From positions 1 to 64,000 of the forward strand of contig NZ_JACNMU010000011.1 of NCBI RefSeq assembly GCF_014901205.1: DNA of 64,000 nt. Reading direction: 5' to 3'. The first letter of the stretch is position 1, and every line of letters begins with the position of its first letter. Below the pieces are notes generated by a model, which made no database searches, was not told where the DNA came from, and worked only from the letters and a program-made list of their open reading frames with translations. Origin of the DNA: Meridianimarinicoccus sp. MJW13. Lineage in GTDB: Bacteria; Pseudomonadota; Alphaproteobacteria; Rhodobacterales; Rhodobacteraceae. The translations under genes were made by a program, and so were the position numbers. Shown here in pieces: positions 12,795 through 28,522 of this stretch.

Positions 12795-13871
12795 ATGAGC
12801 GTCGTCACCTATTTCGTTGAAACCTCCCAGGGCTATCTCGACACCGCCGCAGAAACCCAGTTCGGGTCGGTCGCGGCAACGGTCGGCACGCTTCTCATCC
12901 TGGGAACAACGCTCGTGGTGATCCTCGTCTTCCTGAACATGATCTACCAATACAAGGCGATGGACGGCCGCACGGCCTTCTGGCTCGCGGTCAAGATCGG
13001 ACTGATCGGGATATTCGCGACCAACTGGGTGCAGTTCAACGCGCTTTCCACCGCTATCCTGGCGGGCATCGACAGCATCGCAGGCTCGTTGGTTGCTTCG
13101 GTTGGTGGTGGAACTCCCGGCCCCTCTGGAACTTTCGCCGAAGAGTTTGACCGGCTGATCGCGGAACTAGGGGAATATCTCAACGTCGCCGGATCAGAGC
13201 TGAACTGGATGGCAGGTGCCATGCTCGACATTGTTGGGGTGCTGTTACTTTCGATCCTCGGCGGGCTGGCCGCCTTCATACTCGTGGCATCCCGCCTGAT
13301 GATCGCACTTCTGATCGGGATCGCGCCGGTGATGATATTCTTGACCCTATTCGAAGTGACCAAGGATTACTTCGCGCGATGGCTTTCGGCACTGGTTTCC
13401 TTTGCGCTCTACCCCATCGTTGTCGCCGGCGTATTCGCAACGATCACCGGGGTATCATCAGCCCTGATCGGCGAACTCGGCGATCCGGAAGGCGCTTCCA
13501 ACATTGGCGCGCTCATCCCCTTCTTCATGATGGTGCTCATGGCCAAGGGCTTCATCATCGCAACGCCCTTCATCGTCCGCGCGATCTCCGGCAACATCAT
13601 GATGCCCGCCCTCTCCGGTGGTCTAGGTGGTGGTTACAACTTCGCCCGTGCCGCCATGGGCAGCCAGCAGGCCTACAACCGCTATCTGATCGGCGGTGCC
13701 AGTGGCGCCGAATACGCAGCCCTCAGGGCGCGGCAGTTTTTTGGTGTGCAGCAGATGCCAGTGCGGCAAGGCATGGGACAGACAGGTCAGGCAAGCGGCA
13801 CTGGGTCACCGGGGGCCGGGTCTCAAATGCTGGCGCAACTGGCTAGGCTTGGAAGGTTGGGGCGACGATGA
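12795..13871 (+). CDS. virB6: VirB6/TrbL polytopic membrane protein
   Basis: VirB6 forms part of the inner-membrane channel. This 358-residue protein has about six membrane segments: near residues 30-55, 60-85, 145-175, 178-195, 200-225 and 245-270. Between the second and third lies a periplasmic loop of about 60 residues. The C-terminal 80 residues are cytoplasmic and Gly/Gln-rich. It is the last gene of the operon; the defence island begins immediately afterward on the opposite strand. Confidence 0.9.
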   Translation: MSVVTYFVETSQGYLDTAAETQFGSVAATVGTLLILGTTLVVILVFLNMIYQYKAMDGRTAFWLAVKIGLIGIFATNWVQFNALSTAILAGIDSIAGSLVASVGGGTPGPSGTFAEEFDRLIAELGEYLNVAGSELNWMAGAMLDIVGVLLLSILGGLAAFILVASRLMIALLIGIAPVMIFLTLFEVTKDYFARWLSALVSFALYPIVVAGVFATITGVSSALIGELGDPEGASNIGALIPFFMMVLMAKGFIIATPFIVRAISGNIMMPALSGGLGGGYNFARAAMGSQQAYNRYLIGGASGAEYAALRARQFFGVQQMPVRQGMGQTGQASGTGSPGAGSQMLAQLARLGRLGRR

Positions 13872-14008
13872 CGGGCTAATGAGAACAACCCTCCAAAAAC
13901 CGCAAAGGTACTGCTGGTGATCTTCTACGGGCGGTTTTCATATCCAAAGCGTTGATTTTAGTAGACCAGGATAGCCGCCAAAAACGACTGTTTGCGACCT
14001 GAAGTTTA

Positions 14009-14701
14009 TTAGAATCTTCTACGCCCTCGATAGCCACGCTGGGTGGGTTCTGCGAACTGAACCACTGGTAGCGGCCTCCCTTCACTAATCAACCTAGCGA
14101 ACTCCACCTTTGGGAAGTCGAAGAGATAACGGCTTCTGCCTTGTGCGGCTGTCAGCAAGCATAGATTTTCGCCGCCAAAGTCAAATCCGACGATCTTGCC
14201 CAATGATCCCCATTCTTTGAGAAGCCGTGTTTCCTCGCAATAAACGGTGTAGATATCAACGCCGTTGAACCGTTCCGGATAGTTTTCTGACAGCATCCGT
14301 TCATATTGGATCAGATCAGTTGGGCGGCGGGTTCCATCGATAATCCAAATCACTTGACCGTAGAAATCTGTGCGCTTTCTTACCTCAGCCGACTTGATAG
14401 CAGAGTGCTGGAACTCGATCACAAGGCCATAGGGTGTTTTGATATCCGCAATATGAAGCTCGCCAGTTTCATCGCGAGCTAGCACCTCTTGCCAGTCGGT
14501 AAGAAACCGGTTCTTCCAGTCGCGATGCCACTCGGTTTCGTTTTCCCACCAATGATCACAATGACGGCGGCCTTTGTGCGCCCAATGCCAGGCCTTCTTG
14601 GTCCCGCATCGAGCTAGCATGGCGGCATCGCAGCCTGGGCAGTTGCCCAAGGCACCAGGCATCGCCTCAACTCGTTGACCATTCAAAAGTGCAAAACGCA
14701 T
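14009..14701 (-). CDS. CoiA-like protein with zinc-finger and restriction-type nuclease fold
   Basis: The first 60 residues hold a zinc-binding module (CPGC near 21-24, later HWAHKGRRHCDHWW), and the middle has HIADIKTPYGLVIEFQHSAI, the D...E-x-Q arrangement of PD-(D/E)XK nucleases in the CoiA family. This predicts a DNA endonuclease of 230 residues. CoiA is best known from competence, but here the gene lies 11 bp behind an AAA_13 ATPase in a defence island, so a two-gene nuclease-ATPase defence module is more likely. The substrate is unknown. Confidence 0.7.
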   Translation of the reverse strand: MRFALLNGQRVEAMPGALGNCPGCDAAMLARCGTKKAWHWAHKGRRHCDHWWENETEWHRDWKNRFLTDWQEVLARDETGELHIADIKTPYGLVIEFQHSAIKSAEVRKRTDFYGQVIWIIDGTRRPTDLIQYERMLSENYPERFNGVDIYTVYCEETRLLKEWGSLGKIVGFDFGGENLCLLTAAQGRSRYLFDFPKVEFARLISEGRPLPVVQFAEPTQRGYRGRRRF

Positions 14702-14712
14702 TCCGACGACGC

Positions 14713-16920
14713 CTAGTTCAAATCTGACTTTACGTTCTGGTACAACGTCACCAATTCTGCCATGCCCATGTCTAAGATTGGCTCATACATAAAGGAATTG
14801 AGATGTATATTCGCTGGCGTGATCAGATTAACGCGGCGTAGAAGGCCTATTTTTTCGGCTTCATTATTGAACAAATCTTTGAATTTTTGAAAAATCTTCC
14901 CCGTCTGTTTATTCGAAACATCGAATTCTTCCTGCGCAGAACGGATCTTCGCGACCATGTATCGCTCGGCTCGCATTCTGATCGCGATTGACAGAGCGAT
15001 CTTGTGCTCAAGATTGATGCCATCGGCAACTTTCTCACACTCATCGGCCGTGGCGAAAAGATGCTCAATAATTGGCTGCGTCAGATCAACATCAGGGAAA
15101 GTACACCCGCTCAAATGGCGTTCGAATACGGCCTTGTAGTCCTCGATGGTGAGGTCTTCAGTTTCATCTTTGAAGTGGAGCATCCTGGTAAGCTGAAGGT
15201 AGTCAGCATTAGGATTCCCATCGGCATCTTTTGGGCCAAGCGTGTACTCGATCAAATTACGTAAGAACGGGATATAGGCAATTAGAACGGACGGTTCCGC
15301 CAACCTGGCCTGCCACTTACGAAACGGACTCTGGATGTCCGTCCGCTCGAATGGCTCAAACTTGATCCCATCATCAGATCGAAACGCCAGCCGACACTGA
15401 TGTGCTGGACAGATATCTCTGCTTGAAACTGTTCGAAGGAAATCAAAGTTGTGAGTCAGGACGATGGCAAGGAAATTGGTGTCTTCGACCTTGGTTACAT
15501 CCTCCAAGAAGTCGATGATCGCGAACTTGTTCTTGTAGTCAAACGAGTCAGAAATGTCGTCAAAGACAAAGAGGGTCTTGGTGCGGTTCTTCCATCGCAC
15601 GAATACCTCATACATAATATCAAGTATGTACAGCGCGCGGCTTTCACCTGTGCTTAGTGCTCGGAGCAGCTCTTGCTTTTCGGATGAAGCATAACGCCTC
15701 TCTTCACCTGCATCTTTGATGATAAAAGCAATCGAAGGAGCACTTCCTTTGAGGATCGCATCGGCCTTGTTCTCAACGGAAAGTTCAAATGGCAGGTAGA
15801 GAAAGCGACGATTGAAATCTGCCACTACAGCATCCCAATCACCTCTGCTGCTGTCCGCGTCTGCGATGATTTCAGCGAGAGCACTTTGACCAGTTCGATA
15901 CTCGGATACCAGCGCTTTGTACTCATCAAGTGCAGCCCGAAGATATTGCATCCAAAGGTCACGTTTCAGGCCTTCCGGTTCGTTTAGCATAGGCAGAAGG
16001 TGTTTATTATCTGTGATATAGTCTCGGAAAGCCTGCAGCTCCTTATTTTTGAGCTTTGAATTGAATGTGTCGAATTTCTTCGCCACCGCCTCATCGTTCA
16101 AGACGCGAAGCTTCTCCTCTTCGATGCGCTCGCGAAGAGATTGGTCCGAGGAAACCTCTTCCTTCTGATCCGTGTTTTCATCCGCCAAGCTGATGCTGTG
16201 TCCAGCGTTAAAAAAGTTGTTCGCTTCGAGCTGCTGCTGAACCTGGGCGACATTATGATACCGAAAATCCCTTCGAAGGATTGGCGATTGTTCGGTTATC
16301 TCGTCATACTTTTGCGCAAAGTCCTCGACCGCAGCCGCCACATCTTCGCTGGCAAGGAATTGCTGAACTTTTGGATCGTACAGGATTCTGTAGTCGGCTT
16401 TGCCGAGGTCCGATTGATGAAGTTCGTCGAGCTCGTCCTCAATCGCAGAAAGTGCCTCATAATAGCTGCCGCCAAACACATCCTCGATAATCGGGTCTAA
16501 GTTCTCCCGTGATCTTTCTCCAAACCCCGCAGCGTTCCTGAGAGCTTTGTCCAAAGCCTTTTTTGCTTCGCCAATCGACTGATGGATTCTTTCGTACTTC
16601 GTTCTGAGTTCGGCGTTCGCAAGAAGAGTGGACACCTGACTTGAAGAGAATTTGTCATCGTAGGATTTAACGACGAAAATTTCCTCTTTCTTAATGGCTT
16701 CGCCATTCAGGGTGATCTCACAAGTAGGTTCGCGATCCGGGAAGTGCAGGTCCTTCGGCGAATTGCCTTCCGATAGGTCCATCATTGTCTTCGCAAACGA
16801 TGTTTTCATAACACCGTTCGGAGCGTAGATCGCGTAGCCTTTGTGCTTAAACTCCAGCTCTACCTCAAGTTTTCCAATTCCATAACAATATCTTAAATTT
16901 ATGTTCAGCTTATCGGCCAC
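14713..16920 (-). CDS. AAA_13-type (RloC/PrrC-like) ATPase
   Basis: A large ABC-like ATPase of about 735 residues. Walker A is near residue 35 in the variant form APNGVMKTS. A long coiled-coil middle (about 80-340) follows, then the signature LSTGESRALYILDIMYE and Walker B TLFVFDDISDSFDYKNK near 455, and LAIVLTHNFDFLR with the switch histidine. The C-terminal 250 residues are alpha-helical without a motif I can name. GTG 16920 is preferred over TTG 16932 because GGAG lies six bases before it. Such ATPases sense phage or DNA damage and gate an effector; the CoiA-like nuclease downstream is the obvious candidate. It may be a separate module or the tail of the Shango operon. Confidence 0.75.
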   Translation of the reverse strand: MADKLNINLRYCYGIGKLEVELEFKHKGYAIYAPNGVMKTSFAKTMMDLSEGNSPKDLHFPDREPTCEITLNGEAIKKEEIFVVKSYDDKFSSSQVSTLLANAELRTKYERIHQSIGEAKKALDKALRNAAGFGERSRENLDPIIEDVFGGSYYEALSAIEDELDELHQSDLGKADYRILYDPKVQQFLASEDVAAAVEDFAQKYDEITEQSPILRRDFRYHNVAQVQQQLEANNFFNAGHSISLADENTDQKEEVSSDQSLRERIEEEKLRVLNDEAVAKKFDTFNSKLKNKELQAFRDYITDNKHLLPMLNEPEGLKRDLWMQYLRAALDEYKALVSEYRTGQSALAEIIADADSSRGDWDAVVADFNRRFLYLPFELSVENKADAILKGSAPSIAFIIKDAGEERRYASSEKQELLRALSTGESRALYILDIMYEVFVRWKNRTKTLFVFDDISDSFDYKNKFAIIDFLEDVTKVEDTNFLAIVLTHNFDFLRTVSSRDICPAHQCRLAFRSDDGIKFEPFERTDIQSPFRKWQARLAEPSVLIAYIPFLRNLIEYTLGPKDADGNPNADYLQLTRMLHFKDETEDLTIEDYKAVFERHLSGCTFPDVDLTQPIIEHLFATADECEKVADGINLEHKIALSIAIRMRAERYMVAKIRSAQEEFDVSNKQTGKIFQKFKDLFNNEAEKIGLLRRVNLITPANIHLNSFMYEPILDMGMAELVTLYQNVKSDLN

Positions 16921-17015
16921 GACATTCTCCAAATGATCTCTGCGCCCCCAAAGGTCATTGCATTTGGCACTAGCGGTTCAGAGCATGCAAGGAAACAACC
17001 TCTGCTTCCCATCGC

Positions 17016-19187
17016 TCATGCCTGAATGATCCTTTCAACCAACGTTGGAAGAATTTGAGGAACAAGCTTCGAACTGGCTGCATCCAACTCCAAGAGCGGC
17101 TTCGACAGGTACGGATGAAACTTCTCCGACATGAAGTTCCCTGCTCCCGCGAACAGATCGACAGGTTCGCCAGATCGAATATGCGTTAGTACTGTTTGAA
17201 GATCGGGGGTTTCGTCCCCTGCCTCCACCAGCAGGAACCCGTCATGCTGCTCGACTGAAAACCCCTCACTTCTCAGTGCTAGCGCGAGGGTTGATGTCTT
17301 CACCGTACCGACCCGCGTCGCAATGACTGATGTATGCTCGCCGATAGTGTGTATGTTATTGGCCCTAAACCCCAGCTGTTCATAGTGAGCACGCGCTTCC
17401 TCGAGCATCATCAAAGAGACTGTATCCATGTGAGCTGGGCTAGAATCCCCCTCGAGCACGGCGAACATTCGGTCGATCACTTTGTCATGAATGTCCCCCG
17501 CATCGCCGCCGAAGACCGGAGGCACACCAGCCTTCGCGGGTTTGACGACGATGACCTTTTCACGATCATGGATTTCTTGAACCACCCAACGCCGCCCAGA
17601 AAAAATCAGCAGCATCCCGGGAGCAAGTACATTGTTGATTGGCAGGGTTCCAAGATCCCGCCCCTCTGCAACCAAACGGAATTCCTCAGGTGTCTGGAAC
17701 ACCGCGTAGAAGCTGTAATGCTCAACCAGCTTCTCGCCTGATGGACCCAAAAGCAACAGCCCGCTGCCGGCCTGTTCGATCAAGCCGGTTTCTGGGTGGC
17801 CGATTGCACGCAACGCATCTGCGAAGACTTCGGTTGTGACATTCCGAAAGGGTCCTTCGCGGCAGAGCACCTTGTAGACCACGCTTGCAGACGCGCCGCC
17901 GCGCTGCGCTATGACTGACAGTATCTGATGGACGAGCGTCGAGAGATGAAGCGCCTGAGGTTTTGGAGGTTCGCACCAGCCTTCCAGCAGCAGGTCTATC
18001 ATCGCGATGGACCTGATCAGGCCGAGGCGAAGACGATCCACGAAACTGCTCTCCGGCGTCAACTTGGCTTCGACAGCGTACTGCCTGAGAATGGCCGGCT
18101 GTCCTTCACGGCGGCCTGATCGGCCAAGCCGTTGTCGCAAGGCCGCTACGCTGAATGGCGCACCGATTTGAGCCACGCAGGTCACGTCACCGATGTCGAT
18201 TCCAAGCTCGAGCGTCGACGTGCAAACGGCGGTCGTCGGTTTCGCAGGGTCCTTCAAGCGCCGCTCAACGAAGTCACGGTGTTCTCGGGAGAGGCTCGCG
18301 TGGTGGGGATAGAATTCCTGTGGCAGGTGCTCCCGTTCGCAAAGCTCCCGTAGCCGATCTGCGTAAATCTCGACCCGTTGGCGCGCTCCGGCGAAGACCA
18401 GGTTGTCGCTACCTCGAAGGTGTTTGAAGAGATGGGCTGCAATTGCGTCCGATGCTGACGGGCTGTTTTCATTTTCATCGCCGGAAAGGTAACCGCGAAG
18501 CTGAAGCTTCAATTCAGCCTCGCCGCCATCTGCTTCGATCAGCTGGACAGCGTTTGCGGCGTCAGGGCGAAGATAGGCCTTGGCGAGGTCCATGTCGCCC
18601 AGAGTCGCTGACAGACCTACCCGACGTATTGGGCGCTTTATCGCGAGCTCGAGCCTCGTGAGCAGTGAACGAAGCTGGACACCGCGTTCGCTATCAAGAA
18701 CCGTGTGCAGCTCGTCGATCACGACCGCCCGCGTGGCCCCAAACAGGCGTGCAATTTCCAAACCGCGGCGAATGAAAAGTGCCTCAAGGGACTCCGGGGT
18801 TATCAGCAGGATCCCTTTTGGAGATTTTAACGCGCGCGTCTTGATCGATTGCGAGACATCCCCGTGCCAAGGAACAACGGGAAGCTCCGCTTCCTGGCAG
18901 ATGCCATCCAGCCGCATGGCCTGGTCCGTGATCAAGGCTTTCAGCGGACCGATGTAGAGCAGGTCGAAGCCGGTGCCGCCCGACGGCTCGTCAAGCACCT
19001 GTGAAATCAACGGCAGGAACGCCGCCTCGGTTTTTCCGCCCGCCGTGGACGCCGCAACGATCAAATCGGCGTTGGTCTCGCAGATCGTCCGGATGGATCG
19101 CGCCTGGATATCGCGAAGTTCGCGCCATCCTTGCTGGCGTATCCATTTCTGCACAGGTCTCGCCAGTTTGTCGAACGCACTGCTCAT
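17016..19187 (-). CDS. sngC: Shango-like helicase (SngC), Lhr-type SF2 family
   Basis: A 723-residue superfamily 2 helicase. Motif I is AASTAGGKTE (residues 45-54), motif II DELH (158-161), motif III SAT (193-195) and motif VI QRLGRSGRR (352-360). After the helicase core there is a winged-helix and Lhr-like C-terminal region. In Shango phage-defence loci a helicase is encoded with a TerB protein and an ATPase, which is the arrangement here: the start is 5 bp from the stop of the ATPase gene. It presumably unwinds or translocates on nucleic acid during infection; the mechanism of Shango is not resolved. Confidence 0.8.
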   Translation of the reverse strand: MSSAFDKLARPVQKWIRQQGWRELRDIQARSIRTICETNADLIVAASTAGGKTEAAFLPLISQVLDEPSGGTGFDLLYIGPLKALITDQAMRLDGICQEAELPVVPWHGDVSQSIKTRALKSPKGILLITPESLEALFIRRGLEIARLFGATRAVVIDELHTVLDSERGVQLRSLLTRLELAIKRPIRRVGLSATLGDMDLAKAYLRPDAANAVQLIEADGGEAELKLQLRGYLSGDENENSPSASDAIAAHLFKHLRGSDNLVFAGARQRVEIYADRLRELCEREHLPQEFYPHHASLSREHRDFVERRLKDPAKPTTAVCTSTLELGIDIGDVTCVAQIGAPFSVAALRQRLGRSGRREGQPAILRQYAVEAKLTPESSFVDRLRLGLIRSIAMIDLLLEGWCEPPKPQALHLSTLVHQILSVIAQRGGASASVVYKVLCREGPFRNVTTEVFADALRAIGHPETGLIEQAGSGLLLLGPSGEKLVEHYSFYAVFQTPEEFRLVAEGRDLGTLPINNVLAPGMLLIFSGRRWVVQEIHDREKVIVVKPAKAGVPPVFGGDAGDIHDKVIDRMFAVLEGDSSPAHMDTVSLMMLEEARAHYEQLGFRANNIHTIGEHTSVIATRVGTVKTSTLALALRSEGFSVEQHDGFLLVEAGDETPDLQTVLTHIRSGEPVDLFAGAGNFMSEKFHPYLSKPLLELDAASSKLVPQILPTLVERIIQA

Positions 19188-19192
19188 AGGCG

Positions 19193-20500
19193 TCAGAGCT
19201 TGAAGCTGATCAGATCATCGTCACCGGGGTCTTGGGCACCAGTCGACTCGTCTACCTCGGTCATGTCTTCGCCGAGGTCTTCGGAGACTTCGATCTTTTC
19301 GATCAGATCGCTCCACTCGACACCGGGGTTTTGCTCGAGCACGGAAAGCAGGTTCACGAAGGCCGTCACCGTATTGCGCGGGGTGCGGAAGTAAGCTTCA
19401 CCGATCCGGTCCGAGCAATGCGCCATGAATGCCTCGAGTGCGGCGTCCGGCAGAGCCCTGGCATCGTCCTGCATGATCCGCCGGACATTGGCCAGAAGTA
19501 CGAAAAGGTCTTCAGGGGTCAGGCTGGCGAGCCGGACAACCGGTCCTGAAAGGTCGACCAATCCGTCTCGCGCGAAGGTATTTTCGGCCAAACGCGACTG
19601 AAGGGCTTCGTAGCTATAGAGTCCACGACGGGTGTTCATCAGAAACTCCGGGGTCCCGCCCATGAGAAATCCGAGGTTCTCGGCACTGCCTTGCAGCACA
19701 TCGTTCAGTATCCGGAGGATCTGCTCGTAGTTTGCATTGCGCGCCTGCGACGAGGTGAGCTTGTAGAGGTTCACCATCTCGTCGAGACCGACGAGCAAGC
19801 CTTTGTAACCGGCCTCGCACACAAATGCCGACATCAGCTTCAGATGGTCATAGACACTGGCGTCGTCGATGATCGTTCGCACACCAAGCGCCTTGCGCGC
19901 GTCGGTGCGTGTCGCGAACTCGCCGCGCAGCCATCTCAGGGCTGCGGATTTTAACTCGTCGTCGCCGGTCTCATGGCCTTCCCAATATCGACGGATGACT
20001 TCGGCGAACTCAAACCCTCCGGTAAGTTCTTCAAAGTGGCCAAGGCGTTCACGAATGACGGTCCCCGTGGGCAAATCCCGTTCTTCAGCATCTCGGTGAG
20101 CCTGGCTGACAAACCGTTCCACCACGCTGGCCAATGCCCCGCCATCGGGCTTTGTCCGCGTCGAGAGGTTTCGGGCCATCTCCGCATACAGCCCCCGAGC
20201 TTGTCCGCCGGTCGCGTGAATGCGGCGATCCGGCGCCAGATCCGCGAACATCACGACTAGGCCTTTCTCCAAGGCGACGAGGCGGATCAGGTTCATGAAG
20301 AACGTCTTGCCCGATCCGTATTCCCCGATGATGAACCTGATTGCCGATCCGCCATCGGATATCCGGTCCATGTCCTTAACGAGCTCTTCAATCTCCCGGA
20401 CGCGGCCGACCTGGATATGGCGCAAACCTAGCTTGGGCACGACCCCGGCCCGAAGCGCCTGTACGATTGCATCGCGTTCACGTGGTTTCAACTTAGACAT
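19193..20500 (-). CDS. sngB: Shango-like ATPase (SngB), BrxD/DUF2791-type
   Basis: The protein of 435 residues is a P-loop ATPase of the BREX-BrxD type. Walker A is IIGEYGSGKTFFMN at about residues 57-70; LLVGLDEMVNLYKL near 235 supplies Walker B. A helical C-terminal lid ends with an acidic tail (about 400-430). The first ATG of the frame is at 20515, but ATG 20500 with GAGG and GCAGGG just before it is the better start; it overlaps the TerB gene by 8 bp. With the helicase and TerB protein it completes a Shango core. A BREX assignment is excluded because no PglX, PglZ or BrxC is present. Confidence 0.8.
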   Translation of the reverse strand: MSKLKPRERDAIVQALRAGVVPKLGLRHIQVGRVREIEELVKDMDRISDGGSAIRFIIGEYGSGKTFFMNLIRLVALEKGLVVMFADLAPDRRIHATGGQARGLYAEMARNLSTRTKPDGGALASVVERFVSQAHRDAEERDLPTGTVIRERLGHFEELTGGFEFAEVIRRYWEGHETGDDELKSAALRWLRGEFATRTDARKALGVRTIIDDASVYDHLKLMSAFVCEAGYKGLLVGLDEMVNLYKLTSSQARNANYEQILRILNDVLQGSAENLGFLMGGTPEFLMNTRRGLYSYEALQSRLAENTFARDGLVDLSGPVVRLASLTPEDLFVLLANVRRIMQDDARALPDAALEAFMAHCSDRIGEAYFRTPRNTVTAFVNLLSVLEQNPGVEWSDLIEKIEVSEDLGEDMTEVDESTGAQDPGDDDLISFKL

Positions 20501-23021
20501 CCCTGCCCTCCGCACTCATCTTTTCTTTTACCGCCTCCGCAATCTCCGGAGACACGTCATATCCATCATACTCGTCGAGAAGCGCTTCATCGTAGGTCTC
20601 AAAAGCCCATTCATTCACAACTTCCAGTGCCCCGGACGCCATCAAGCCATGCGAGGCGCAGATCGTCTCGAACTCTGTGTCAGACCAATGCTCCCGAGTA
20701 ACTAGTTCGAGGACAAGGGCGCCGTGTTTCGGGTCAAGCCCCGCCAGCTGGCTTTGGCTGGCGGGCCCAGACGCACCACTTTCTTCCTCTTCGACATCGA
20801 AAATCCGACCGAGGACGGACGACACGCGCTCAGTGTCCGAACGGATTGCTGCGATCCGCGACGCGTCGAGTTTGGGTCCGCTGGCTTTTTCAAGATCGGG
20901 TATCGCTTCGCCCGGGCGACCCGGTTGCGAGGCACGAACAGTGCGAGGACCATCCGCGACTTCGCCAGCATGCAGATCCGAGTAGGCAAGCTCAGGATCG
21001 AGGCCCAAAGCCTTGTAGATTTTCTCGATGCTTGCGACTTCGTCGGAGTGAATAATGCCATCGGCATGTGCTGCACCAACCAGTGCTGCCCGCATAGCGG
21101 CCTGGCTGTCTTGGCCCACTTCCTTCAATTTGCGCCGCAGAAGCGTCATGTCCGGCGGCACGGCCAGGAACCATTCAAGGTTTGCACGCAGCCTGCGGCG
21201 TTCCTGATCGCTAAGGGTCGCGGCAGAAACTTGATCTACCAGCGCCCTACGTTCCGGCTCCGCGATGCGACCATCCGCATGGGCGACGAACGACCCAAGT
21301 GCCAATTCGATCAAGGCGCTTCGATAGCTGTCGGAAACTTCCTCCAGTCTTTCGATCGGTTCGCCCAGGCTAAACAGCACAACAGGCTCCTCCGCATTGG
21401 GCGACCGGAGCGCAAACCGAGGATCGGGCGCCAGACCGAAACCGAGGCGCGCGAGCGCGTCGGCCGCTCCTGTCATTTGCCGTTTCCCGATCTTCTCGTT
21501 CGTTTCTCCCTCCAGCCGTCCGATCACCTCCTCAAGCGGCACCAATCCCCCCCGATCGACGATATCGATTGCCCATGATTTCAAGCGGTCCATTTCCTCT
21601 GATGGGAAAGCATCCCAAAGTTCAGAGGGCAGCAAGGCATGCGCTTCCACACTTCCGCGACCGTCAGGGTTTCGGCCCAGGAAGCGACTGAGCTTGTCGA
21701 GGTCGTTCATCACCTCGTCAGCCAACTCTTGGGCAATCTCGACCGGTTTGCGCAGGCCGGAAATATCGGGGACCGGCTTGCCGTCGACGGTTGGGTTGGC
21801 GGACCCCTGAAACTCGCTGGAGGCGGCCCGATAGGATGCAGTGAGTGATTTCCGTGGTTTTGTCACTTTGAGTCCATCAGGAAAACGCCGATCAAACCGC
21901 ATACGGAACAGCGCGACGAACTCGTCACGGCACCGCGTCGCGGGAGTTCTCAGATTTGTTTCCGGATGGCAGATGAACCAACTCAGCAACCAGTCAGCTG
22001 TCAGGTTCTCGCCTTTGTCGATACGAGCTCCGATTGCGTATTTGAGTGAGAACGGAAGTTCCCAGCCCTGCTTCTCGAAAATCGGCTCGATAGCGTCGAG
22101 GTCGGTTTCGGCGAGCATCGCGATGTCGAGGAACTCACCCAAATACCGCCTGACGGAATGGTTATCAGGGTAAAGTGACTGCAGCCGTCGAACTTCCTGG
22201 ACGATATCCTTTGCATCTTCGTTCGACTGATCGACGAAGAAGCGACGCTCCAGCCCGTAGAAGTACAAGAACATGTAGCCGGGGTTATAGGAAGCGTCGC
22301 TTCGCCCACTTGCCAACCACTCCAAATAGGTTGCCCGACACTGGGGTGAGATATCCGAGTATCCGGGCCAATACGGCATGCTATCGCCAGCCTTGTCCCT
22401 GCCCGAGCGCGCGACCGACAGGGACGGATCGATATAGGCTCGGCATTTGTCACGATACCCGTAGGAGTTCAGCAAGGGAGGCGTGCCAACATAGACCATC
22501 CCGCCGATGTTGAGACCGGAGACGCTAGCCGTTTCGCTAGAAGGGACCCACCCGCTTTTCTTTGTTCGGGACGACCAGCTCGATGCAACTCGCCCAGATT
22601 GTTTTCTTTCAGCGGCTGCCGCAAGAGCTGGCGCCGCAGACTTTCCAGCGCGAACGATCTCAGCGTAGTCCTGCTTCGGTGGGGAATAGGCTTGCGTCGC
22701 AACCGATGCCGTGGAAACAATGGCTTCGCGAGTTCGTTCGCGTTCACGCTCGACACGATTTTCATACGCATTTGGAGACGCTACCAGCGCTAAATTCGGT
22801 TTTGTTGTTTCCGAACTCTTTGCGCCGCCATTTGTAGCGGCAATTTTTCTAGATCGCCGCCTTTCTTGCCACCAAACCAAAAAGACGGGCGCTCCCAATG
22901 CAAAAAGAACTTGGCTGCCGTCCGACCAAGACTGCAATCCAAGGGTAACAATTACCAAAGCAGCAAAGAAATAAATCGCTAAAAAAAATGTAACGCGAAA
23001 AACCTTCCATACAAAACTCAT
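20493..23021 (-). CDS. sngA: TerB-domain membrane protein of the Shango core (SngA-like)
   Basis: I place the start at ATG 23021, preceded by GGAG nine bases upstream; the frame opens 57 bases earlier. Two membrane helices lie in the first 60 residues (KVFRVTFFLAIYFFAALVIV and LFALGAPVFLVWW), then a basic linker. A TerB-N domain follows, with MPYWPGYSDISPQCRATYLE and GYMFLYFYGLERR near residues 230-280. A central helical region, a TerB domain (HADGRIAEPERRALV and HADGIIHSDEVASIEKIYKAL, with metal-binding-type acidic residues) and a TerB-C domain complete about 842 residues. TerB proteins link membrane stress sensing to DNA processing. Here it is the probable sensor or scaffold of the defence complex. 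Confidence 0.82.
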   Translation of the reverse strand: MSFVWKVFRVTFFLAIYFFAALVIVTLGLQSWSDGSQVLFALGAPVFLVWWQERRRSRKIAATNGGAKSSETTKPNLALVASPNAYENRVERERERTREAIVSTASVATQAYSPPKQDYAEIVRAGKSAAPALAAAAERKQSGRVASSWSSRTKKSGWVPSSETASVSGLNIGGMVYVGTPPLLNSYGYRDKCRAYIDPSLSVARSGRDKAGDSMPYWPGYSDISPQCRATYLEWLASGRSDASYNPGYMFLYFYGLERRFFVDQSNEDAKDIVQEVRRLQSLYPDNHSVRRYLGEFLDIAMLAETDLDAIEPIFEKQGWELPFSLKYAIGARIDKGENLTADWLLSWFICHPETNLRTPATRCRDEFVALFRMRFDRRFPDGLKVTKPRKSLTASYRAASSEFQGSANPTVDGKPVPDISGLRKPVEIAQELADEVMNDLDKLSRFLGRNPDGRGSVEAHALLPSELWDAFPSEEMDRLKSWAIDIVDRGGLVPLEEVIGRLEGETNEKIGKRQMTGAADALARLGFGLAPDPRFALRSPNAEEPVVLFSLGEPIERLEEVSDSYRSALIELALGSFVAHADGRIAEPERRALVDQVSAATLSDQERRRLRANLEWFLAVPPDMTLLRRKLKEVGQDSQAAMRAALVGAAHADGIIHSDEVASIEKIYKALGLDPELAYSDLHAGEVADGPRTVRASQPGRPGEAIPDLEKASGPKLDASRIAAIRSDTERVSSVLGRIFDVEEEESGASGPASQSQLAGLDPKHGALVLELVTREHWSDTEFETICASHGLMASGALEVVNEWAFETYDEALLDEYDGYDVSPEIAEAVKEKMSAEGRDV

Positions 23022-23134
23022 CAATAAAATCTCCAAACTGGCCAGTTCGATCTCAAGAGAACGGCGCCCACATCTCAACCTCTAGGCGATTTTTCTCTGC
23101 TAGAACAATCGAATCCCCAGTGGGGGTGCACATT

Positions 23135-23437
23135 TCAGCAGTTTTCGAAGAGGTCAGGCGTGTTCGTGTCACGCACTCGGCTCAAACCTTCGCCAACATG
23201 CAAACATGGGTGCTTTATCCTATACAATCCCTTCGCGCCCTCAAAATGAGCGCTGCCACCATTGGGCATACGGACCGTGACCACGTCTGCACCGCATATG
23301 GGGCACTGATGCCGGAAACTGCGCTGGCGCTTTGCCTTCGAAGAAGACTGTAAGACCCAGCTTTCTCGAACGTCGGTAGTGCCACCATTTGGCAAGCGCC
23401 GCGAATGAGCTCGCCGTCGAAACCAACGAGGATCCAT
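23135..23437 (-). CDS. Small zinc-ribbon protein between SbcC and the TerB gene
   Basis: This 100-residue frame starts in a TGATG overlap with the stop codon of sbcC, so it is very likely translated by coupling. The N-terminus is basic (RWFRRRAHSRRLPNGG). The second half holds HQCPICGADVVTVRMPNGG and KHPCLHVGEG, a C-x2-C plus C-x-H arrangement that should bind zinc, and the tail ends in TPDLFENC. The GC content and coupling match its neighbours. I know no named family. It is a candidate extra subunit of the Shango-SbcCD operon, perhaps a nucleic-acid or protein adaptor. Confidence 0.6.
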   Translation of the reverse strand: MDPRWFRRRAHSRRLPNGGTTDVRESWVLQSSSKAKRQRSFRHQCPICGADVVTVRMPNGGSAHFEGAKGLYRIKHPCLHVGEGLSRVRDTNTPDLFENC

Positions 23438-26400
23438 CAGACCACCCCCCTTTCCTCTATACTACTCCCAGACATCCCTTTTCTGACATAGAAGCCGTTT
23501 GGGATCGCCTCCTGGACGAGCGGTACATGCGAAATCAGACCCACCGCACGGTTCTGTCGGACGATGGAGTTGAGGACCTGTAGGACCTGGTCGAGCGTGC
23601 CGGACCCGTTTTCGGTGTCGAGGCTTCCAAACCCTTCGTCGATAAAAATCGTGTCGAGCCGGACTTTGCCGCTCGCCGCTTCGACCACGTCGGCAAGACC
23701 CAGTGCGAGAGCGAGTGCCGCAATGAACGTCTCGCCGCCTGAGAGTGTGCTTGTAGCGCGTGATTTCCCAGTGTGCGCGTCAAACACCTGTGTTCCAAGG
23801 CCTCGCTTGCCTCGCCCTCCGTTCTCCATCTCACGCTCGAGACTATACTGATAGTTTGTCATCGGACCGAAGCGTAGGTTTGCAGCTTCCAGAATCTGAT
23901 CGAACATCGCGCCTATTGCGAATGTCTCCAGGGTCAGTCTTTGCGAGTTCTGCCCGTTCACCAGCGCTGCTAGACCGCGCAGCGGGCCGGATGCCGCTTC
24001 GGCTTCGTCAAGCTTGCGCAGCGTCTCGTCCATCACCTTTTTAAGCCGATCCAAATGATCGACACGGGTCTGGGCGGCGATGCGTTCTTCGGTCGCCCTG
24101 CTGAGCGCCTCGGCATGGGTCTGGTGCGTTTCTCGTAGCGCTTCGAGATCAGGCCGGGACATCCCTTCGATCGCAGAGGCGGCATCTGTGGCTGCGTCAG
24201 ACGCACTCTTGTGCTCGCGCCGGTATGTCTCGACGGCTTCCCTATCCTCATCGAGAGTTTCGATGGCTGGTTTGAGAGACTGAAACGCCTCTGCTGTGAG
24301 GCCAGCTCCAGCCAGTCTCGTCCGGAAGACCTCAACCGCCTTTTGATGGCGCGCCTTACAGTCCACGAGCGCCTTACTTGCGCTTTCAAGATCCTTAACC
24401 GCGCCGAGTGCCATTTCGCGCGCGGAGTTCAGCGCTTTGTCTGCCCCGATCCGCGCCGCCTGAAGCGACTCCAGCGACCCGGTCACCTTCTTCAAATTGG
24501 CCGCGAGCGCCGTGACATCGCGCAGGTCCTGCGGCACCTCGGCAAGCTTTCCATCGCGAGTCGCCTTGGCCTCAGTAGCCTTGTTCCGCCGCTCATCGAA
24601 GCTGTCCCGCAACTCATCGCGTTTCCGCTCCAATTCCTCGATCTGAAGTGCCAGTTCCTCGATCCCGGTCTCCGCGGCAAGAATGTCTACCCGGGGCCCA
24701 AGCGCTGCGAGTGCGTCGTCTGCATGACCGATTCGCGCCGCGATGACGGCTGCGCGCTCCTCTGGCGGTTCAAGGGTGGACAAGCGTTTCTGTCGCTCCT
24801 CGAGCGTCGCTTGCACCCCGACCAGTGCTTCGCCAGCTTTCCGGGCATCGCGATCGGCGGCCAGCCATGCTTCTCGTGACTCACGGAATGCCTTGTCCAG
24901 GCCGGCACTACCGATCTCGCCAGTCGCCGGCGCAGGATGTTCGGTTGCGCCACAGACCGGACATGGCGACCCTGCTTCCAATCTCATCGCAAGGTGAAGC
25001 GCCTGTGCGGCCGCTAGATCCCGTTCGGCCGTCTCATAATCATCTCGCGCCTTCTCGGCCTTTCCGGCCGCAGCTTCCGACGTCCGCAGTTGTTCTTCGA
25101 CAGCGGCCTGAGCCGTTGCAACATCCTGCAAAGCGACCTCGTAGGACTTGGCGGCCAGATGCCGTTTGTCGAGCTCTGCGCGCCGACCCGCGATCTCGGC
25201 GCGCTTCGCCTCCGTTTCGCGCGCAGCTTTTAGCTCTGCGCTTTTCGAGGTGCGCTTCTCCTGCAGTTCGGTCAGTTGTGCCTTTGCTGCCTTAAAAGCG
25301 TTGTCGGCGTCCCGCTGCTCTTTTAGCGCGGTTTCGACTGCCTGATTGCTATCGGCCGCTTCCTCGAGGATTCGACCATACCTCTCCAGTTCATCACTTC
25401 TCCGGCGCAGGGTTTCGACCTCATCGGCACGATCGTCCTCGCGCCGGAGCGCCTCTGCCGCCTTTTCTGCTTCTCTGGAAGCAAGCTCGCTGGCCTCGTC
25501 AGCCTTGTTGCGCGCGCCCTCGGCTTCACCAACCTCACGTTCGGCATCCCTCACTCGTTCCTCGACATCGATCAGACCGCGCGCGCGCTCGGCTTGTCGG
25601 ATCTGCTCAGAAAGCGTCTCGACATCGCCCTTCTGCGCCTCAAGTGCGCGAAGCCGTTCGTTCATCTTTTCGGCCGTCGCGAATTTTTCTTCGATCGCCT
25701 CCGCCTGACGCACTGCTTTCTCGGCAGCTTCCGCCGTCGCCTTCCCGGTTTCTTCGTTCGCGCGTAGCTCTGCGCATTTCCCAGCTGCGGCTTCGATGCC
25801 CGAAATCAGTGCATCAGTGCTTTCGAACCCTTCTGCCGCGAGTTGCCTGATGCAGAGCGCACGTTCCTCTCGCACCTGCCGTTCAGCCTCATCGGCTGCT
25901 GACTTGAGATCGGCCATGAGCTTCTCGTATAGCGAGACATCGAAGAGTTCTCGCAGGATTTCGAGGCGCTCTTTCGTCTTGGCCGAAAGGAACTTCTCGA
26001 AGCGCCCTTGCGGCAAGAGGACGATCTGGCGAAATTGCTCGGAGCCATATCCAAGCATCTCGACGAGGGCCGCGTCGACCTCGCGCACCTTCTTCTCTGC
26101 CACGATCTTGCCCCGCGCTGCGTCTGTAATGTCATCCAACGACATTCCAGTCGCATCGAACAGAAAGGCCTCATGTGCGCTCCGCGTCTCGCCTTCACCG
26201 CGTGCCTTAGGTCGCATCTGGTCGGGTCGGCGAAGCACAACATATCGCCGCTCACCAATGTCGAACACGAACTCCGCCTCGGTCATTATATCCGGATCGG
26301 CGTGATCCGAGCGCAACGAAGGAGCGTCTTGCTCTGCCTTCGCCGCTTCTCCAAAGAGCGCAAAGGTCATCGCGCTGAAGACGGTCGATTTACCTGATCC

Positions 26401-26511
26401 TGTTTGTCCGTAGATGCCGAAAAGACCCGCCTCAACGGCATCCCGAAAGTCGATAACCACCCGACCTGGATAGGGACCGAACGCCTGAAGTGTTAGCCGA
26501 ACCGGTCTCAT
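23437..26511 (-). CDS. sbcC: SbcC-like SMC/Rad50-type ATPase subunit
   Basis: At 1024 residues this is a full-length SbcC. Walker A is GIYGQTGSGKST (residues 33-44). Long coiled coils flank a zinc hook with CPVCGATEHPAP near residue 516. The ABC signature TLSGGETFIAALALALGLADV lies near 920 and Walker B TIFIDEGFGSLD near 950. With SbcD it forms an ATP-controlled nuclease that opens hairpins and trims protein-blocked or double-strand ends. The start overlaps the sbcD stop (ATGA) and the stop overlaps the zinc-ribbon gene. A plasmid copy beside defence genes suggests use against phage DNA rather than housekeeping repair. Confidence 0.9.
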   Translation of the reverse strand: MRPVRLTLQAFGPYPGRVVIDFRDAVEAGLFGIYGQTGSGKSTVFSAMTFALFGEAAKAEQDAPSLRSDHADPDIMTEAEFVFDIGERRYVVLRRPDQMRPKARGEGETRSAHEAFLFDATGMSLDDITDAARGKIVAEKKVREVDAALVEMLGYGSEQFRQIVLLPQGRFEKFLSAKTKERLEILRELFDVSLYEKLMADLKSAADEAERQVREERALCIRQLAAEGFESTDALISGIEAAAGKCAELRANEETGKATAEAAEKAVRQAEAIEEKFATAEKMNERLRALEAQKGDVETLSEQIRQAERARGLIDVEERVRDAEREVGEAEGARNKADEASELASREAEKAAEALRREDDRADEVETLRRRSDELERYGRILEEAADSNQAVETALKEQRDADNAFKAAKAQLTELQEKRTSKSAELKAARETEAKRAEIAGRRAELDKRHLAAKSYEVALQDVATAQAAVEEQLRTSEAAAGKAEKARDDYETAERDLAAAQALHLAMRLEAGSPCPVCGATEHPAPATGEIGSAGLDKAFRESREAWLAADRDARKAGEALVGVQATLEERQKRLSTLEPPEERAAVIAARIGHADDALAALGPRVDILAAETGIEELALQIEELERKRDELRDSFDERRNKATEAKATRDGKLAEVPQDLRDVTALAANLKKVTGSLESLQAARIGADKALNSAREMALGAVKDLESASKALVDCKARHQKAVEVFRTRLAGAGLTAEAFQSLKPAIETLDEDREAVETYRREHKSASDAATDAASAIEGMSRPDLEALRETHQTHAEALSRATEERIAAQTRVDHLDRLKKVMDETLRKLDEAEAASGPLRGLAALVNGQNSQRLTLETFAIGAMFDQILEAANLRFGPMTNYQYSLEREMENGGRGKRGLGTQVFDAHTGKSRATSTLSGGETFIAALALALGLADVVEAASGKVRLDTIFIDEGFGSLDTENGSGTLDQVLQVLNSIVRQNRAVGLISHVPLVQEAIPNGFYVRKGMSGSSIEERGVV

Positions 26512-27650
26512 TGGACATCCTCCGTCTCGCGCAGGCGACCGAGTGCCGACGCTACGACCTCCAGTTCGTTCTCTGAGAACCCTTCTTCCCGCACGTGTTC
26601 GAGGAAGTCGCCAATGACCTCGACAGGGTTCGCGACCGCTAGGGCACGTCCCGTTAAGGACTTCACTTCTGGCGCCTGTTCATCCCGCTCGTAGAAAAGT
26701 TCACAGGCGTTCGGGAACACGTCGCGGATGCGCTTCATTCCATCGATCACAGGCGCATCATCGGTAAGCACGGCTTTGATAAAATCGTCAGATCGGTCTG
26801 CGAGGAGAAGTTCTGCGTGACGTCCCTTCAAGACGCGCACTTGGCGAATGGGTGTGAAAGGAATGCTCTCTATCGTGGTTTGCCCGACTGCATCGATCTC
26901 GACGAGGCTCATCGACTTCTGGCAGTCAGATTCATCAAACCCGAAAGCCAGTGGCGATCCCGAATACCGGATATGAGGGGCACCAACCGATTGCGGCCGG
27001 TGCAGATGGCCAAGAGCCACATAATGGGCACCCTCAAACACGGCCGAACTGACGGTCTCGATGCCGCCGACCCTAGTGAGAGGTCGTTCACTTTCGCTGC
27101 TTGAAGCCCCGGCTACGAAAGCATGCGAAACGACGACCCAACGCGTACCATCGGGAATGTTACGCCGACCGCAAGCCACCTGAGCCGCGAGAACGTCCTC
27201 GGGAGTGTGGAGAGCTTCGTCGGAAAAACATTCACGGGCAGCATACTCGTAGGCGAAGGGCAACCCTGTGAACGCCACAGGTCCGTGGGCGTCCGTAAGT
27301 AACAGCGGCTTCTCGTCCGCACTGATAGCCCCACGTATCAAAGCGCGTCGTGTGTCTGTCATGATCGCCATGGACGCGATTCGATCACCCGAGTCGTGAT
27401 TGCCGGCGATCATTACCACGGCCGCCTCGGTCTCCGAGGCAACGCGCGCCAAGAACCCATTGAACTGACGCACGGCAGACGTCGGCGGGGCAGCCCGGTC
27501 AAAAATATCTCCTGCAATCACAAGAACGTCAACGTCGCGGGAGGTGATCGCCGAAACGATCTGATCGAGAATTGCTGCGTGATCGGCATCGAGAGGAATC
27601 CCGTTGAACTGACGTCCGAGATGGAGGTCGGCAGTGTGAAGAATCCTCAT
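26508..27650 (-). CDS. sbcD: SbcD-like Mre11-type nuclease subunit
   Basis: A calcineurin-like metallophosphoesterase of 380 residues. Metal ligands are visible in DLH (residues 8-10), GDIFD (47-51), GNHDS (83-87), SHAFV near 175 and GHLHRPQ near 215. The C-terminal capping region is of usual length. It provides the nuclease active sites of SbcCD. It is the first gene of the minus-strand defence operon. The start lies 77 bp from the divergent WYL regulator, whose probable operators occupy the gap. Confidence 0.9.
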   Translation of the reverse strand: MRILHTADLHLGRQFNGIPLDADHAAILDQIVSAITSRDVDVLVIAGDIFDRAAPPTSAVRQFNGFLARVASETEAAVVMIAGNHDSGDRIASMAIMTDTRRALIRGAISADEKPLLLTDAHGPVAFTGLPFAYEYAARECFSDEALHTPEDVLAAQVACGRRNIPDGTRWVVVSHAFVAGASSSESERPLTRVGGIETVSSAVFEGAHYVALGHLHRPQSVGAPHIRYSGSPLAFGFDESDCQKSMSLVEIDAVGQTTIESIPFTPIRQVRVLKGRHAELLLADRSDDFIKAVLTDDAPVIDGMKRIRDVFPNACELFYERDEQAPEVKSLTGRALAVANPVEVIGDFLEHVREEGFSENELEVVASALGRLRETEDVQ

Positions 27651-27657
27651 GACAATG

Positions 27658-27695
27658 GTCCATATAATTTTTATTCGTATAATTTCTAGATGGAC
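27658..27695. promoter_or_regulatory. Divergent promoter region between sbcD and the WYL gene
   Basis: The short AT-rich gap contains an inverted repeat GTCCAT (27658-27663) and ATGGAC (27690-27695), with two direct repeats TATAATTT between them at 27663-27670 and 27678-27685. The direct repeats could also supply -10 boxes. Symmetry and location suit binding by the WYL regulator encoded to the right, which would control both directions. Binding is inferred. Confidence 0.45.
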
Positions 27696-27727
27696 ATACA
27701 GGCGAGAGTCAAGGTAGGGATGCGCAC

Positions 27728-28522
27728 ATGAAGCTCGACGACCTCAAACATGCGCAGAGAGAGCGCCTGATCTTTCTGGACCGTTGCCTGACTTGGCGGG
27801 GTATGGCAAACCGCAAGGATCTGATCGACCACTTCGGTATTTCGACCGCGCAGGCAGCGCTGGACTTCCGTGTCTATCTTGGTCTCGCGCACAGTTCACC
27901 GCCGACCTATGATCCGGTGCGAAAGACATACATAGCTGCGAGCGAGCACGAGGCATTAGCACCATCCGGCCTGACCGAAGCCTTCGATATCTTGGCATGC
28001 GTCGATGAAGACACGCCTTCGTCCGCGTTGCCTCGACCGGAACGGAAGGCAGATCAAAGGACCATCGCGTTTCTTCATCAAGCAATCAGGTCGGGGAAAG
28101 CCGTCCACGTCCGATACACATCAATGTCGTCCGGTGCCGACGAAGGGCAGTGGATCGCACCGACCCGCTTCACGTCCGATGGTGAAAGCGTGCACTTGCG
28201 TGCCCACAGTTTCAAACGCGGTGAATATCGGAACTACCTCCCGATCCGCATTGATCCTGACAGCTCCTTCGAGGAGAAACCCATAGACAAGCCTCTGCCG
28301 GAGGACGTGGATTGGAATACTCGAGCAATCATTTGGCTGCGACCAAAAACAGGACTTTCAGATGAGCAAGCAAAGGTCGTCAGACGTGAATTCGGCTTTG
28401 AAGGCGAATGGCTCCGTGTCGAAACCAGAAAAGCGCTGGAATTCTTTTTTGATCGTCGATGGGGGTTGGATACCGTAGGTGCACGGCTTGAGCGCGCGAA
28501 AACGGACTACGAACCAATATGA
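27728..28522 (+). CDS. WYL-domain transcriptional regulator of the defence island
   Basis: The 264-residue protein has an N-terminal winged helix (WRGMANRKDLIDHFGISTAQAALD, residues 22-45), a central WYL-type domain (IAFLHQAIRSGKAVHVRYTSMS then RWIAPTRF-like and LRAHSFKRGEYRNYLPIRI, about 115-185) and a C-terminal WCX region. This is the BrxR/CapW architecture: a dimeric repressor found beside BREX, CBASS and other defence loci and thought to sense a ligand through WYL. It diverges from sbcD and so probably represses the whole minus-strand operon. It ends 3 bp from the convergent virD4. Confidence 0.85.
   Translation: MKLDDLKHAQRERLIFLDRCLTWRGMANRKDLIDHFGISTAQAALDFRVYLGLAHSSPPTYDPVRKTYIAASEHEALAPSGLTEAFDILACVDEDTPSSALPRPERKADQRTIAFLHQAIRSGKAVHVRYTSMSSGADEGQWIAPTRFTSDGESVHLRAHSFKRGEYRNYLPIRIDPDSSFEEKPIDKPLPEDVDWNTRAIIWLRPKTGLSDEQAKVVRREFGFEGEWLRVETRKALEFFFDRRWGLDTVGARLERAKTDYEPI

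What the first reader, a model, noticed from the sequence alone, without database searches (positions are those of the whole stretch)
14009..28522. Enlarged Shango-type defence island with SbcCD, a zinc-ribbon protein and a WYL regulator
The minus strand reads SbcD, SbcC, a 100-aa zinc-ribbon protein, a membrane TerB protein, a BrxD-like ATPase, an Lhr-type helicase, an AAA_13 ATPase and a CoiA-like nuclease, with a divergent WYL gene at the start. Shango as described has three genes (TerB, ATPase, helicase). Here sbcD-sbcC-zinc protein and TerB-ATPase-helicase are joined by overlaps or short gaps. SbcCD would add an end-processing nuclease and the WYL gene a control switch. Whether the extra genes are required is inference.
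Basis: partly seen in the sequence, partly recalled or inferred. Interest (0 to 1): 0.85.

Follow-up and report, generated by a model that had tools for sequence, protein, structure and literature searches.

The report
WYL-SbcCD-zinc cassette beside Shango defence genes
A stretch of a conjugative plasmid carries the known three-gene Shango anti-phage system next to a separate, independently travelling four-gene set (a switch protein, a DNA-end-cutting nuclease pair and a small zinc-type protein) that also turns up beside several other defence systems, so the neighbours look like stacked shields rather than one bigger Shango.

Summary
The genes are as described: complete SngA-SngB-SngC (Shango), SbcD-SbcC, a real 100-aa zinc-type protein, a divergent WYL gene, PDC-S46 and a CoiA-like gene, in a cargo slot between trbL and traG of a Roseobacter-type conjugative element. 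One 'enlarged Shango' is not supported: WYL-SbcD-SbcC-Zn is a separate cassette. Of 80 close SngB loci, 7 carry it upstream (one plasmid lineage) and 2 convergent; some loci are short. In 345 family genomes it adjoins Shango at 3 of 17 SngB places. Elsewhere it sits beside Gabija, BREX, SIR2-HerA, CBASS, PDC-S37 or phage-like replication genes. 13 of 17 Shango genomes have no SbcD over the cut-off. Against this: 11 of 22 close Shango plasmids also carry the cassette, in four arrangements (control genes 0 of 12 and 0 of 3), so the two may be co-selected. The WYL gene has its own operator before sbcD (24 of 25 cassettes; one copy in the genome), not before Shango; but here Shango lacks the upstream element of 22 of 25 close unlinked copies, so read-through could put it under WYL control. 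The novel part is a mobile, WYL-linked SbcCD cassette, probably acting on invading DNA ends; function is untested.

The parts
27728..28522 (+). WYL-domain regulator, divergent from sbcD
   Evidence: PF13280 E 1.9e-5; 42-58% identical to eight WYL proteins divergent from sbcD elsewhere
27658..27712 (-). Putative promoter/operator between WYL and sbcD: TTGACT (27707-27712) and imperfect dyad GTCCAT...TATACGAATA...ATGGAC (27658-27695)
   Evidence: dyad core found once in the window and once in the whole genome; pattern in 25 of 26 cassette loci, 24 of 25 distinct
26508..27650 (-). SbcD (Mre11-type nuclease subunit)
   Evidence: TIGR00619 153 bits, over cut-off
23437..26511 (-). SbcC-type ATPase (Rad50-like), overlaps the end of sbcD by four bases
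   Evidence: PF13476, PF13558; Walker A, CPVC, LSGG
23135..23437 (-). Zn: 100-aa CxxC/HFE/HxC protein of no known family; overlaps sbcC by one base
   Evidence: invariant residues; purifying selection; diverges in step with SbcC, r 0.87
20493..23078 (-). SngA (TerB protein; likelier start ATG at 23021; two hydrophobic N-terminal stretches seen by eye)
   Evidence: PADLOC SngA E 7e-103; TerB_N, TerB, TerB_C
19193..20515 (-). SngB (BrxC/D-type ATPase), overlaps sngA
   Evidence: PADLOC SngB E 3e-176
17016..19187 (-). SngC (DEAD/DEAH-type helicase)
   Evidence: PADLOC SngC E 1e-270
14713..16932 (-). PDC-S46 candidate defence ATPase (separate cargo)
   Evidence: PADLOC PDC-S46 E 1e-240; other genes stand in its place in L018 (same contig as L156)
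14009..14701 (-). CoiA-like gene next to PDC-S46
   Evidence: PF25164, PF06054
12795..13871 (+). trbL: left edge of the cargo slot
   Evidence: PF04610; backbone identity ends at 13787-13880 in the 22 listed records below the top three
28526..30538 (-). traG/T4CP: right edge of the cargo slot
   Evidence: PF02534

Best explanation
The island is a stack of at least three separable defence-type modules in the trbL-traG cargo slot of a Roseobacter-type conjugative element: (1) WYL/sbcD-sbcC-zn, (2) Shango sngABC, (3) PDC-S46 with a CoiA-like gene. Module 1 is a mobile cassette of its own. I propose that the WYL protein represses the sbcD promoter through the dyad between WYL and sbcD; an infection-linked ligand or nucleic acid relieves repression; SbcCD is then made in hosts that mostly lack it and cuts free, hairpin or protein-capped DNA ends of invading phages or plasmids; the zinc-type protein helps, perhaps as a DNA-binding or nuclease partner. 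Shown: gene content, separability of the modules, the conserved element, intact motifs, and no other SbcD over the cut-off in the host genome. Inferred: repression, induction, target and protection. Modules 1 and 2 may be co-selected, and in this lineage Shango may also receive read-through transcription from module 1.
For: Of the 80 best SngB loci, 9 carry the cassette (7 same direction, all with the same traG; 2 convergent) and 71 show none; of 44 with at least 8 kb up and 6 kb down, 7 carry it. Of 345 family genomes, SbcC type in 17, Zn in 13, SngB in 17; cassette adjacent at 3 SngB places. Other neighbours: GajA/GajB, PglZ, PDC-S37, PDC-S24, SIR2 and HerA by PADLOC; BREX-1, CBASS-type and TIR genes by record annotation. 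The closest copy seen without Shango (SbcC 89%, WYL 89%) lies among phage-like primase, Dda-type helicase and endonuclease VII genes in an IMG/VR record. Shango homology to an unlinked copy (L023) runs 17018-23006, stopping at the SngA start. Pairwise identities: SbcD-SbcC r 0.99, SbcC-Zn 0.87 (pairs not independent). All 46 pattern hits in 5.07 Mb of both-strand sequence precede sbcD. Other plasmids hold CBASS-type, type I RM, DUF4433/macro/TrlF and ATPase/helicase genes at the slot. SbcD over cut-off in 14 of 198 family genomes.
Against: No experiment. 11 of 22 plasmid records with close SngB also carry the SbcC type, controls 0 of 12 and 0 of 3, so the modules are not fully independent in occurrence; the 22 fall into fewer lineages. 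Other Mre11-Rad50-like genes lie near Shango in L038, L041, L048, and weak SbcD-like matches lie 10-18 kb from SngB in G229, G239, G272. SbcCD could serve repair or plasmid upkeep. WYL identities follow SbcD/SbcC less well (r 0.56-0.58). 3 of 16 full-length SbcC places lack WYL and Zn, 2 more lack Zn.
Confidence: 0.58

Rival explanations
1. Enlarged Shango: SbcCD, Zn and WYL are functional parts of one Shango variant, SbcCD processing DNA ends exposed by SngB and SngC.
For: Kept order with short gaps in one plasmid lineage; convergent arrangement; genome co-occurrence; 11 of 22 close Shango plasmids carry the cassette, in four arrangements (adjacent same direction; convergent; about 10 kb apart; about 24 kb apart), controls 0 of 12 and 0 of 3; other SbcCD-like genes near Shango in three loci.
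Against: 71 of 80 close Shango loci show no cassette; 13 of 17 Shango genomes lack an SbcD over the cut-off, though 9 of the 13 have a weaker partial match; three genes gave protection in PAO1 (PMC10250203, passages), though PAO1 has its own SbcCD (recalled); transposase genes interrupt sbcC in Sagittula P11 while sngABC is still annotated; Salipiger profundus keeps sbcDC with no Shango in the slot.
Confidence: 0.17
2. Regulatory capture: separate proteins, but in this lineage Shango lost its own upstream region and is transcribed from the WYL-linked sbcD promoter, giving a co-induced two-layer defence. (Not exclusive of the best explanation.)
For: Element AAAATAGT upstream of sngA in 22 of 25 unlinked loci with SngA at least 77% identical, in 0 of 7 linked loci; no promoter-like site and no same-strand terminator-like site found at 22700-23500; junction nearly constant in the 5 linked loci read.
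Against: The element was picked after seeing five of the sequences and is not shown to be a promoter; 0 promoter-like sites against 0.5 expected says little; the 113-bp junction could hold a new promoter; the linked loci are one lineage, so one event.
Confidence: 0.35
3. Plasmid housekeeping: SbcCD-Zn aids replication, transfer or repair of its element and is not immune.
For: Many copies are on plasmids, some next to replication or transfer genes (for Zn alone); SbcCD is a known repair nuclease.
Against: A copy lies in a virus-classed record and several beside defence genes; none of six slot stretches read in related plasmids has it annotated, so the backbone does not need it there.
Confidence: 0.25

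Closest known systems
Shango (SngABC)
   Same: All three proteins, their order and direction; near full-length PADLOC matches.
   Different: Long SngA (861 or 842 aa against a 528-position model); upstream element of close unlinked relatives missing; cassette placed in front.
SbcCD / Mre11-Rad50
   Same: Nuclease and hooked ATPase with the checked motifs intact.
   Different: Mobile; divergent WYL gene with its own conserved element; third, zinc-type gene; SbcD over cut-off in only 14 of 198 family genomes.
WYL regulators of defence islands (PMC9122601)
   Same: WYL protein beside a defence-type operon.
   Different: That paper has none of exonuclease, Mre11, Rad50, Shango or SMC (term search of its main text); I saw its listing and that result only.
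Lamassu (LmuB, Rad50-like)
   Same: Rad50-like ATPase in defence islands (PMC10586767, passages); LmuB match E 1.6e-17.
   Different: Here a 1024-aa SbcC type with an SbcD partner; no LmuA match among the nine proteins.

Membership tests
Shango | SngA, SngB and SngC all present and near full length | tested here: met
   residues 136-853, 7-427 and 2-709 matched
Shango | Order TerB-ATPase-helicase, one direction | tested here: met
Shango | Three genes give phage protection | not testable with these tools
   shown for the PA14 genes in PMC10250203 (passages)
SbcCD | SbcD over curated cut-off | tested here: met
   TIGR00619 153.2 vs 77.65 bits
SbcCD | SbcC over curated cut-off | tested here: not met
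   TIGR00618 273 vs 478.5; NF041751 346 vs 920; so I say 'SbcC-type'
SbcCD | Walker A, CxxC hook, LSGG signature in SbcC | tested here: met
Lamassu | LmuB plus LmuA effector | tested here: not met
   no LmuA match among nine proteins at E 0.001; LmuB weak
BREX | PglZ and PglX present | tested here: not met
   no match among nine proteins, SngC's list being cut at 25 of 48; SngB 155 vs 350 for BrxD
WYL transcription switch | Divergent WYL gene with a conserved element at its promoter | tested here: met
WYL transcription switch | WYL protein binds that element | not testable with these tools
   only indirect: dyads differ in step with WYL type

The most novel reading that the evidence does not exclude
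A mobile, WYL-repressed Mre11-Rad50 cassette with a new zinc-protein family is a stand-alone immune system that arms SbcCD-less bacteria against invading DNA ends, carried by conjugative plasmids and by a virus-classed element; it is co-selected with Shango, and in this plasmid lineage it has captured Shango into its regulon by replacing Shango's upstream region, so one infection signal switches on two unrelated defences.
Probability: 0.25. Interest if true: 0.78.

Novelty: new variant of a known kind. Interest (0 to 1): 0.55.

Why it matters
SbcCD/Mre11-Rad50 is usually seen as a repair nuclease that phages must block. A version packaged with its own switch and accessory protein, moving between mobile elements and stacking with known defences, would make its immune role directly testable in hosts that have no other copy. 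The conserved element gives a handle on what WYL regulators of defence genes sense. It also shows why adjacency with short gaps does not make one system, while the plasmid co-residence with Shango asks whether the two work better together.

Tried and rejected
Lamassu and BREX membership were rejected. Solved-structure search with the Zn alignment gave two hits at E 0.7-0.8; SngA and SngB gave none. The AlphaFold model of Zn was too weak, so no fold search was run. Zn in annotated phages: no match at E 1e-3; SbcC there in 19 records, one covering 80%, 27.9% identical. The IMG/VR record: portal family PF04860 not found, so 'virus-classed', not proven phage. TerB_N was not found in it (the same model rings in the window's genome), nor window Sng proteins by tblastn in L157. 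My ORF caller mis-called L140; redone by tblastn. Searches that showed no paper on a WYL-SbcCD-zinc cassette: (open-access library; capped listings). PMC10221251 lists Shango and PD-T7-2 on S. faviae plasmid 4 and has no 'SbcC' in its text (passages), although sbcD-sbcC lie there at 27.1-31.2 kb. The two locus sets overlap: L156 = L018, L145 and L046 share a contig, L141 and L029 too. Rows dropped: two partial SbcC places (G280, G165) from the 16 full-length; repeated operator sequences (25 distinct of 46 hits).
Full report
What is there. SngA, SngB and SngC match the PADLOC Shango families nearly end to end (SngA from residue 136). SbcD passes its curated cut-off; SbcC is matched by SbcC models but not over their cut-offs, and keeps Walker A, a CPVC hook and the LSGG signature. 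The 100-aa gene has no named family but looks real: 16 invariant columns in 14 aligned sequences, CxxC, HFE and HxC among them, and strong purifying selection (pS 0.58, pN 0.08 for L046 against L129). The WYL gene is divergent. The left part is PDC-S46 and a CoiA-like gene.

Where it lies. The island sits between trbL and the coupling-protein gene of a conjugative element. In the 22 listed plasmid records below the top three, identity to the window stops at 13787-13880 (198 records match some part of the first 25 kb, 25 listed). I read that place in six of them. L163 holds nucleotidyltransferase, ThiF, Mov34 and SAVED genes (CBASS-type, my reading), L162 a type I restriction set, L164 DUF4433, macro-domain and TrlF genes, L159 DUF4365, ATPase and helicase genes, L161 a restriction endonuclease and an AAA ATPase with transporter genes between; in L160 other genes follow trbL and no traG was in the fetched stretch. 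None of the six has SbcCD annotated there. So it is a slot with changing cargo. In L018 (the same contig as L156) a ThsA and other genes stand in place of PDC-S46 and CoiA.

Is SbcCD part of Shango? I mapped the window's proteins on the 80 best SngB loci (of 545 found). Seven have WYL-SbcD-SbcC-Zn upstream, all with the same traG beside it (one lineage); two have it downstream and convergent, with SbcC 43% identical while SngB is 94% identical; 71 show none. Some loci are short; of the 44 with at least 8 kb upstream and 6 kb downstream, 7 have it. In 345 family genomes the SbcC type is in 17 (18 places, 16 full length), Zn in 13, SngB in 17. They adjoin in G000 (the window), G001 and G261; G153 has both on different contigs. 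G001, G261 and G153 are also among the 80 loci, so the samples are not independent. Co-occurrence is 4 against 0.84 expected (P 0.0065); 3 against 0.74 without the window's genome (P 0.032); 2 if G001, of the same plasmid lineage, is left out too (P 0.17). Of the 17 Shango genomes, 4 have an SbcD over the cut-off; 9 of the other 13 have a weaker partial match, 4 have none at E 1e-10. So Shango persists without SbcCD of this kind.

Against a clean separation. Of the 22 listed plasmid records with SngB at least 93.8% identical, 11 also stand among the 36 listed records with SbcC at least 37% identical over most of its length (lists, compared by eye): three of the window's lineage (adjacent), three Phaeobacter inhibens (convergent, 2.6 kb), two Roseobacter denitrificans (about 10 kb apart with CBASS-type genes between) and three Sulfitobacter (about 24 kb apart). 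As controls I took two defence genes from slot plasmids without the cassette: a CD-NTase (12 records at 89% or more, none with the cassette; two R. denitrificans records at 49% do have it) and a TrlF gene (3 records at 99% or more, none). The 22 records are four or so cassette lineages against up to eleven without, so the excess is real in counts but small in events. Also, SbcCD-like genes of other kinds lie near Shango in L038, L041 and L048, and weak SbcD-like matches 10-18 kb from SngB in G229, G239 and G272. Co-selection of two separable modules fits all this best; a fixed complex does not.

The cassette travels alone. Of the 16 full-length SbcC places, 13 have a divergent WYL and 11 have Zn next to sbcC, one of them (G250) split over two frames. 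Zn lies beside an SbcC match at 12 of 14 Zn places; G053 and G228 have none. I scanned 20 proteins near cassettes, near Zn or in the slot: 12 had a PADLOC match at E 1e-10: GajA and GajB in L142, GajA and PDC-S24 in L145, PglZ in L146, PDC-S37 in L148 and L149, SIR2 and HerA in L151, a UvrD-type helicase in L144, a weak LmuB-like ATPase in L128 and the slot's ThsA in L018; eight had none. Record annotation adds BREX-1, SIR2, TIR and CBASS-type genes. The closest copy seen without Shango (SbcC 89%, SbcD 90%, WYL 89%, Zn 72%) is in an IMG/VR record next to primase-helicase, Dda-like helicase, endonuclease VII and ParB/methylase-like genes; a portal gene was not found. In Sagittula P11 transposase genes interrupt sbcC and Shango follows; in Salipiger profundus sbcD-sbcC remain, Zn matches over 32 residues only, and no Shango gene is annotated in the slot.

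A specific switch. The WYL-sbcD gap holds CTTGACTC, about nine bases, GTCCAT, then a TATACGTATA-like dyad. TTGACT-N8-13-GTCCAT occurs 46 times in 5.07 Mb of both-strand sequence (overlapping loci included), and every hit precedes an SbcD start: 42 by ADLH within 200 bases, four by the printed frames (TADWH or TSDWH). The pattern was drawn from these gaps, so its two hexamers are conserved by construction; the dyad core was not required. It is in 25 of 26 cassette loci, 24 of 25 distinct ones, L134 having a variant. L126, L143, L150 and L151 have a WYL unlike that of L125 although SbcC is 70-86% identical to it, and their dyads differ in step, as expected if WYL reads the dyad. The window's dyad core occurs once in its genome at up to 3 mismatches, and not in front of Shango.

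The twist. AAAATAGT lies upstream of sngA in 22 of 25 unlinked loci with SngA at least 77% identical and in none of 7 linked loci; the other 33 of 65 assessable loci are more distant and lack the exact string. I chose the string after seeing five unlinked loci. Shango homology to L023 runs 17018-23006, stopping at the SngA start. Between zn and sngA no promoter-like site and no same-strand terminator-like site was found. So in this lineage Shango may be read through from the WYL-linked promoter; this is inference from one lineage.

How it may work. SbcCD cleaves blocked ends and hairpins (PMC6265447, abstract start in the listing). In E. coli it attacks hairpin-ended N15-type DNA unless TelN protects, and the authors write that it acts as a phage defence there (PMC12624138, passages). 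SbcD is over the cut-off in 14 of 198 family genomes, and this cassette's is the only one over it in the window's genome (a partial match on C19 is below it). A mobile copy thus adds an activity that the host otherwise seems to lack. In R. denitrificans pTB1 an HNH gene stands where Zn would be, and Zn-like genes precede a CD-NTase and SLATT pair in two Rhizobiaceae plasmids (Pfam for L132, annotation for L133), which suggests a small DNA-acting accessory. None of this is tested.

Verdict. Genes confirmed; one enlarged Shango not supported, co-selection possible; a mobile WYL-SbcCD-zinc cassette, with no strong PADLOC match for SbcC, SbcD or Zn and not found described in my searches, is the interesting part.

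Noticed in passing
L038:13003-17588, L041:16812-21314, L048:12230-17267: Other Mre11-Rad50-like genes (27-28% SbcD identity) a few kb downstream of Shango, not of the cassette type; island sharing or a second link.
   Followed up: partly
L132:7001-7276, L133:7001-7282: A Zn-family gene, not annotated in the record, directly before a CD-NTase and a SLATT gene (CBASS-like), with an HTH-M78 type regulator divergent.
   Followed up: partly
L131:11076-11366: In Roseobacter denitrificans pTB1 a 96-aa HNH protein takes the place of Zn behind sbcC.
   Followed up: partly
L157:2892-8315, L158:1-288: Two IMG/VR records hold Zn; in one the whole cassette (SbcC 89%) lies amid phage-like replication genes, and in both a long convergent ORF follows.
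   Followed up: partly
L125:7734-7988, L129:5734-5988, L144:7878, L148:84: A small WGR-domain gene follows WYL in several cassettes.
   Followed up: no
L134:6092-8381: In R. leguminosarum Zn lies between the dyad and sbcD, and transposases follow sbcD.
   Followed up: no
L137:9389-9688, L138:8604-8888, L174:9513-9818: Zn relatives with no SbcC found nearby; role unknown.
   Followed up: no
L018:13511-16503: ThsA and three more ORFs stand in place of PDC-S46 and CoiA in the same slot.
   Followed up: partly
plasmids NZ_CP115760/NZ_CP115762 and NZ_CP022422/NZ_CP022419: Cassette and Shango on different plasmids of what the names suggest is one strain (Paracoccus sp. SCSIO 75233; a Skeletonema isolate); seen only in the lists.
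   Followed up: no
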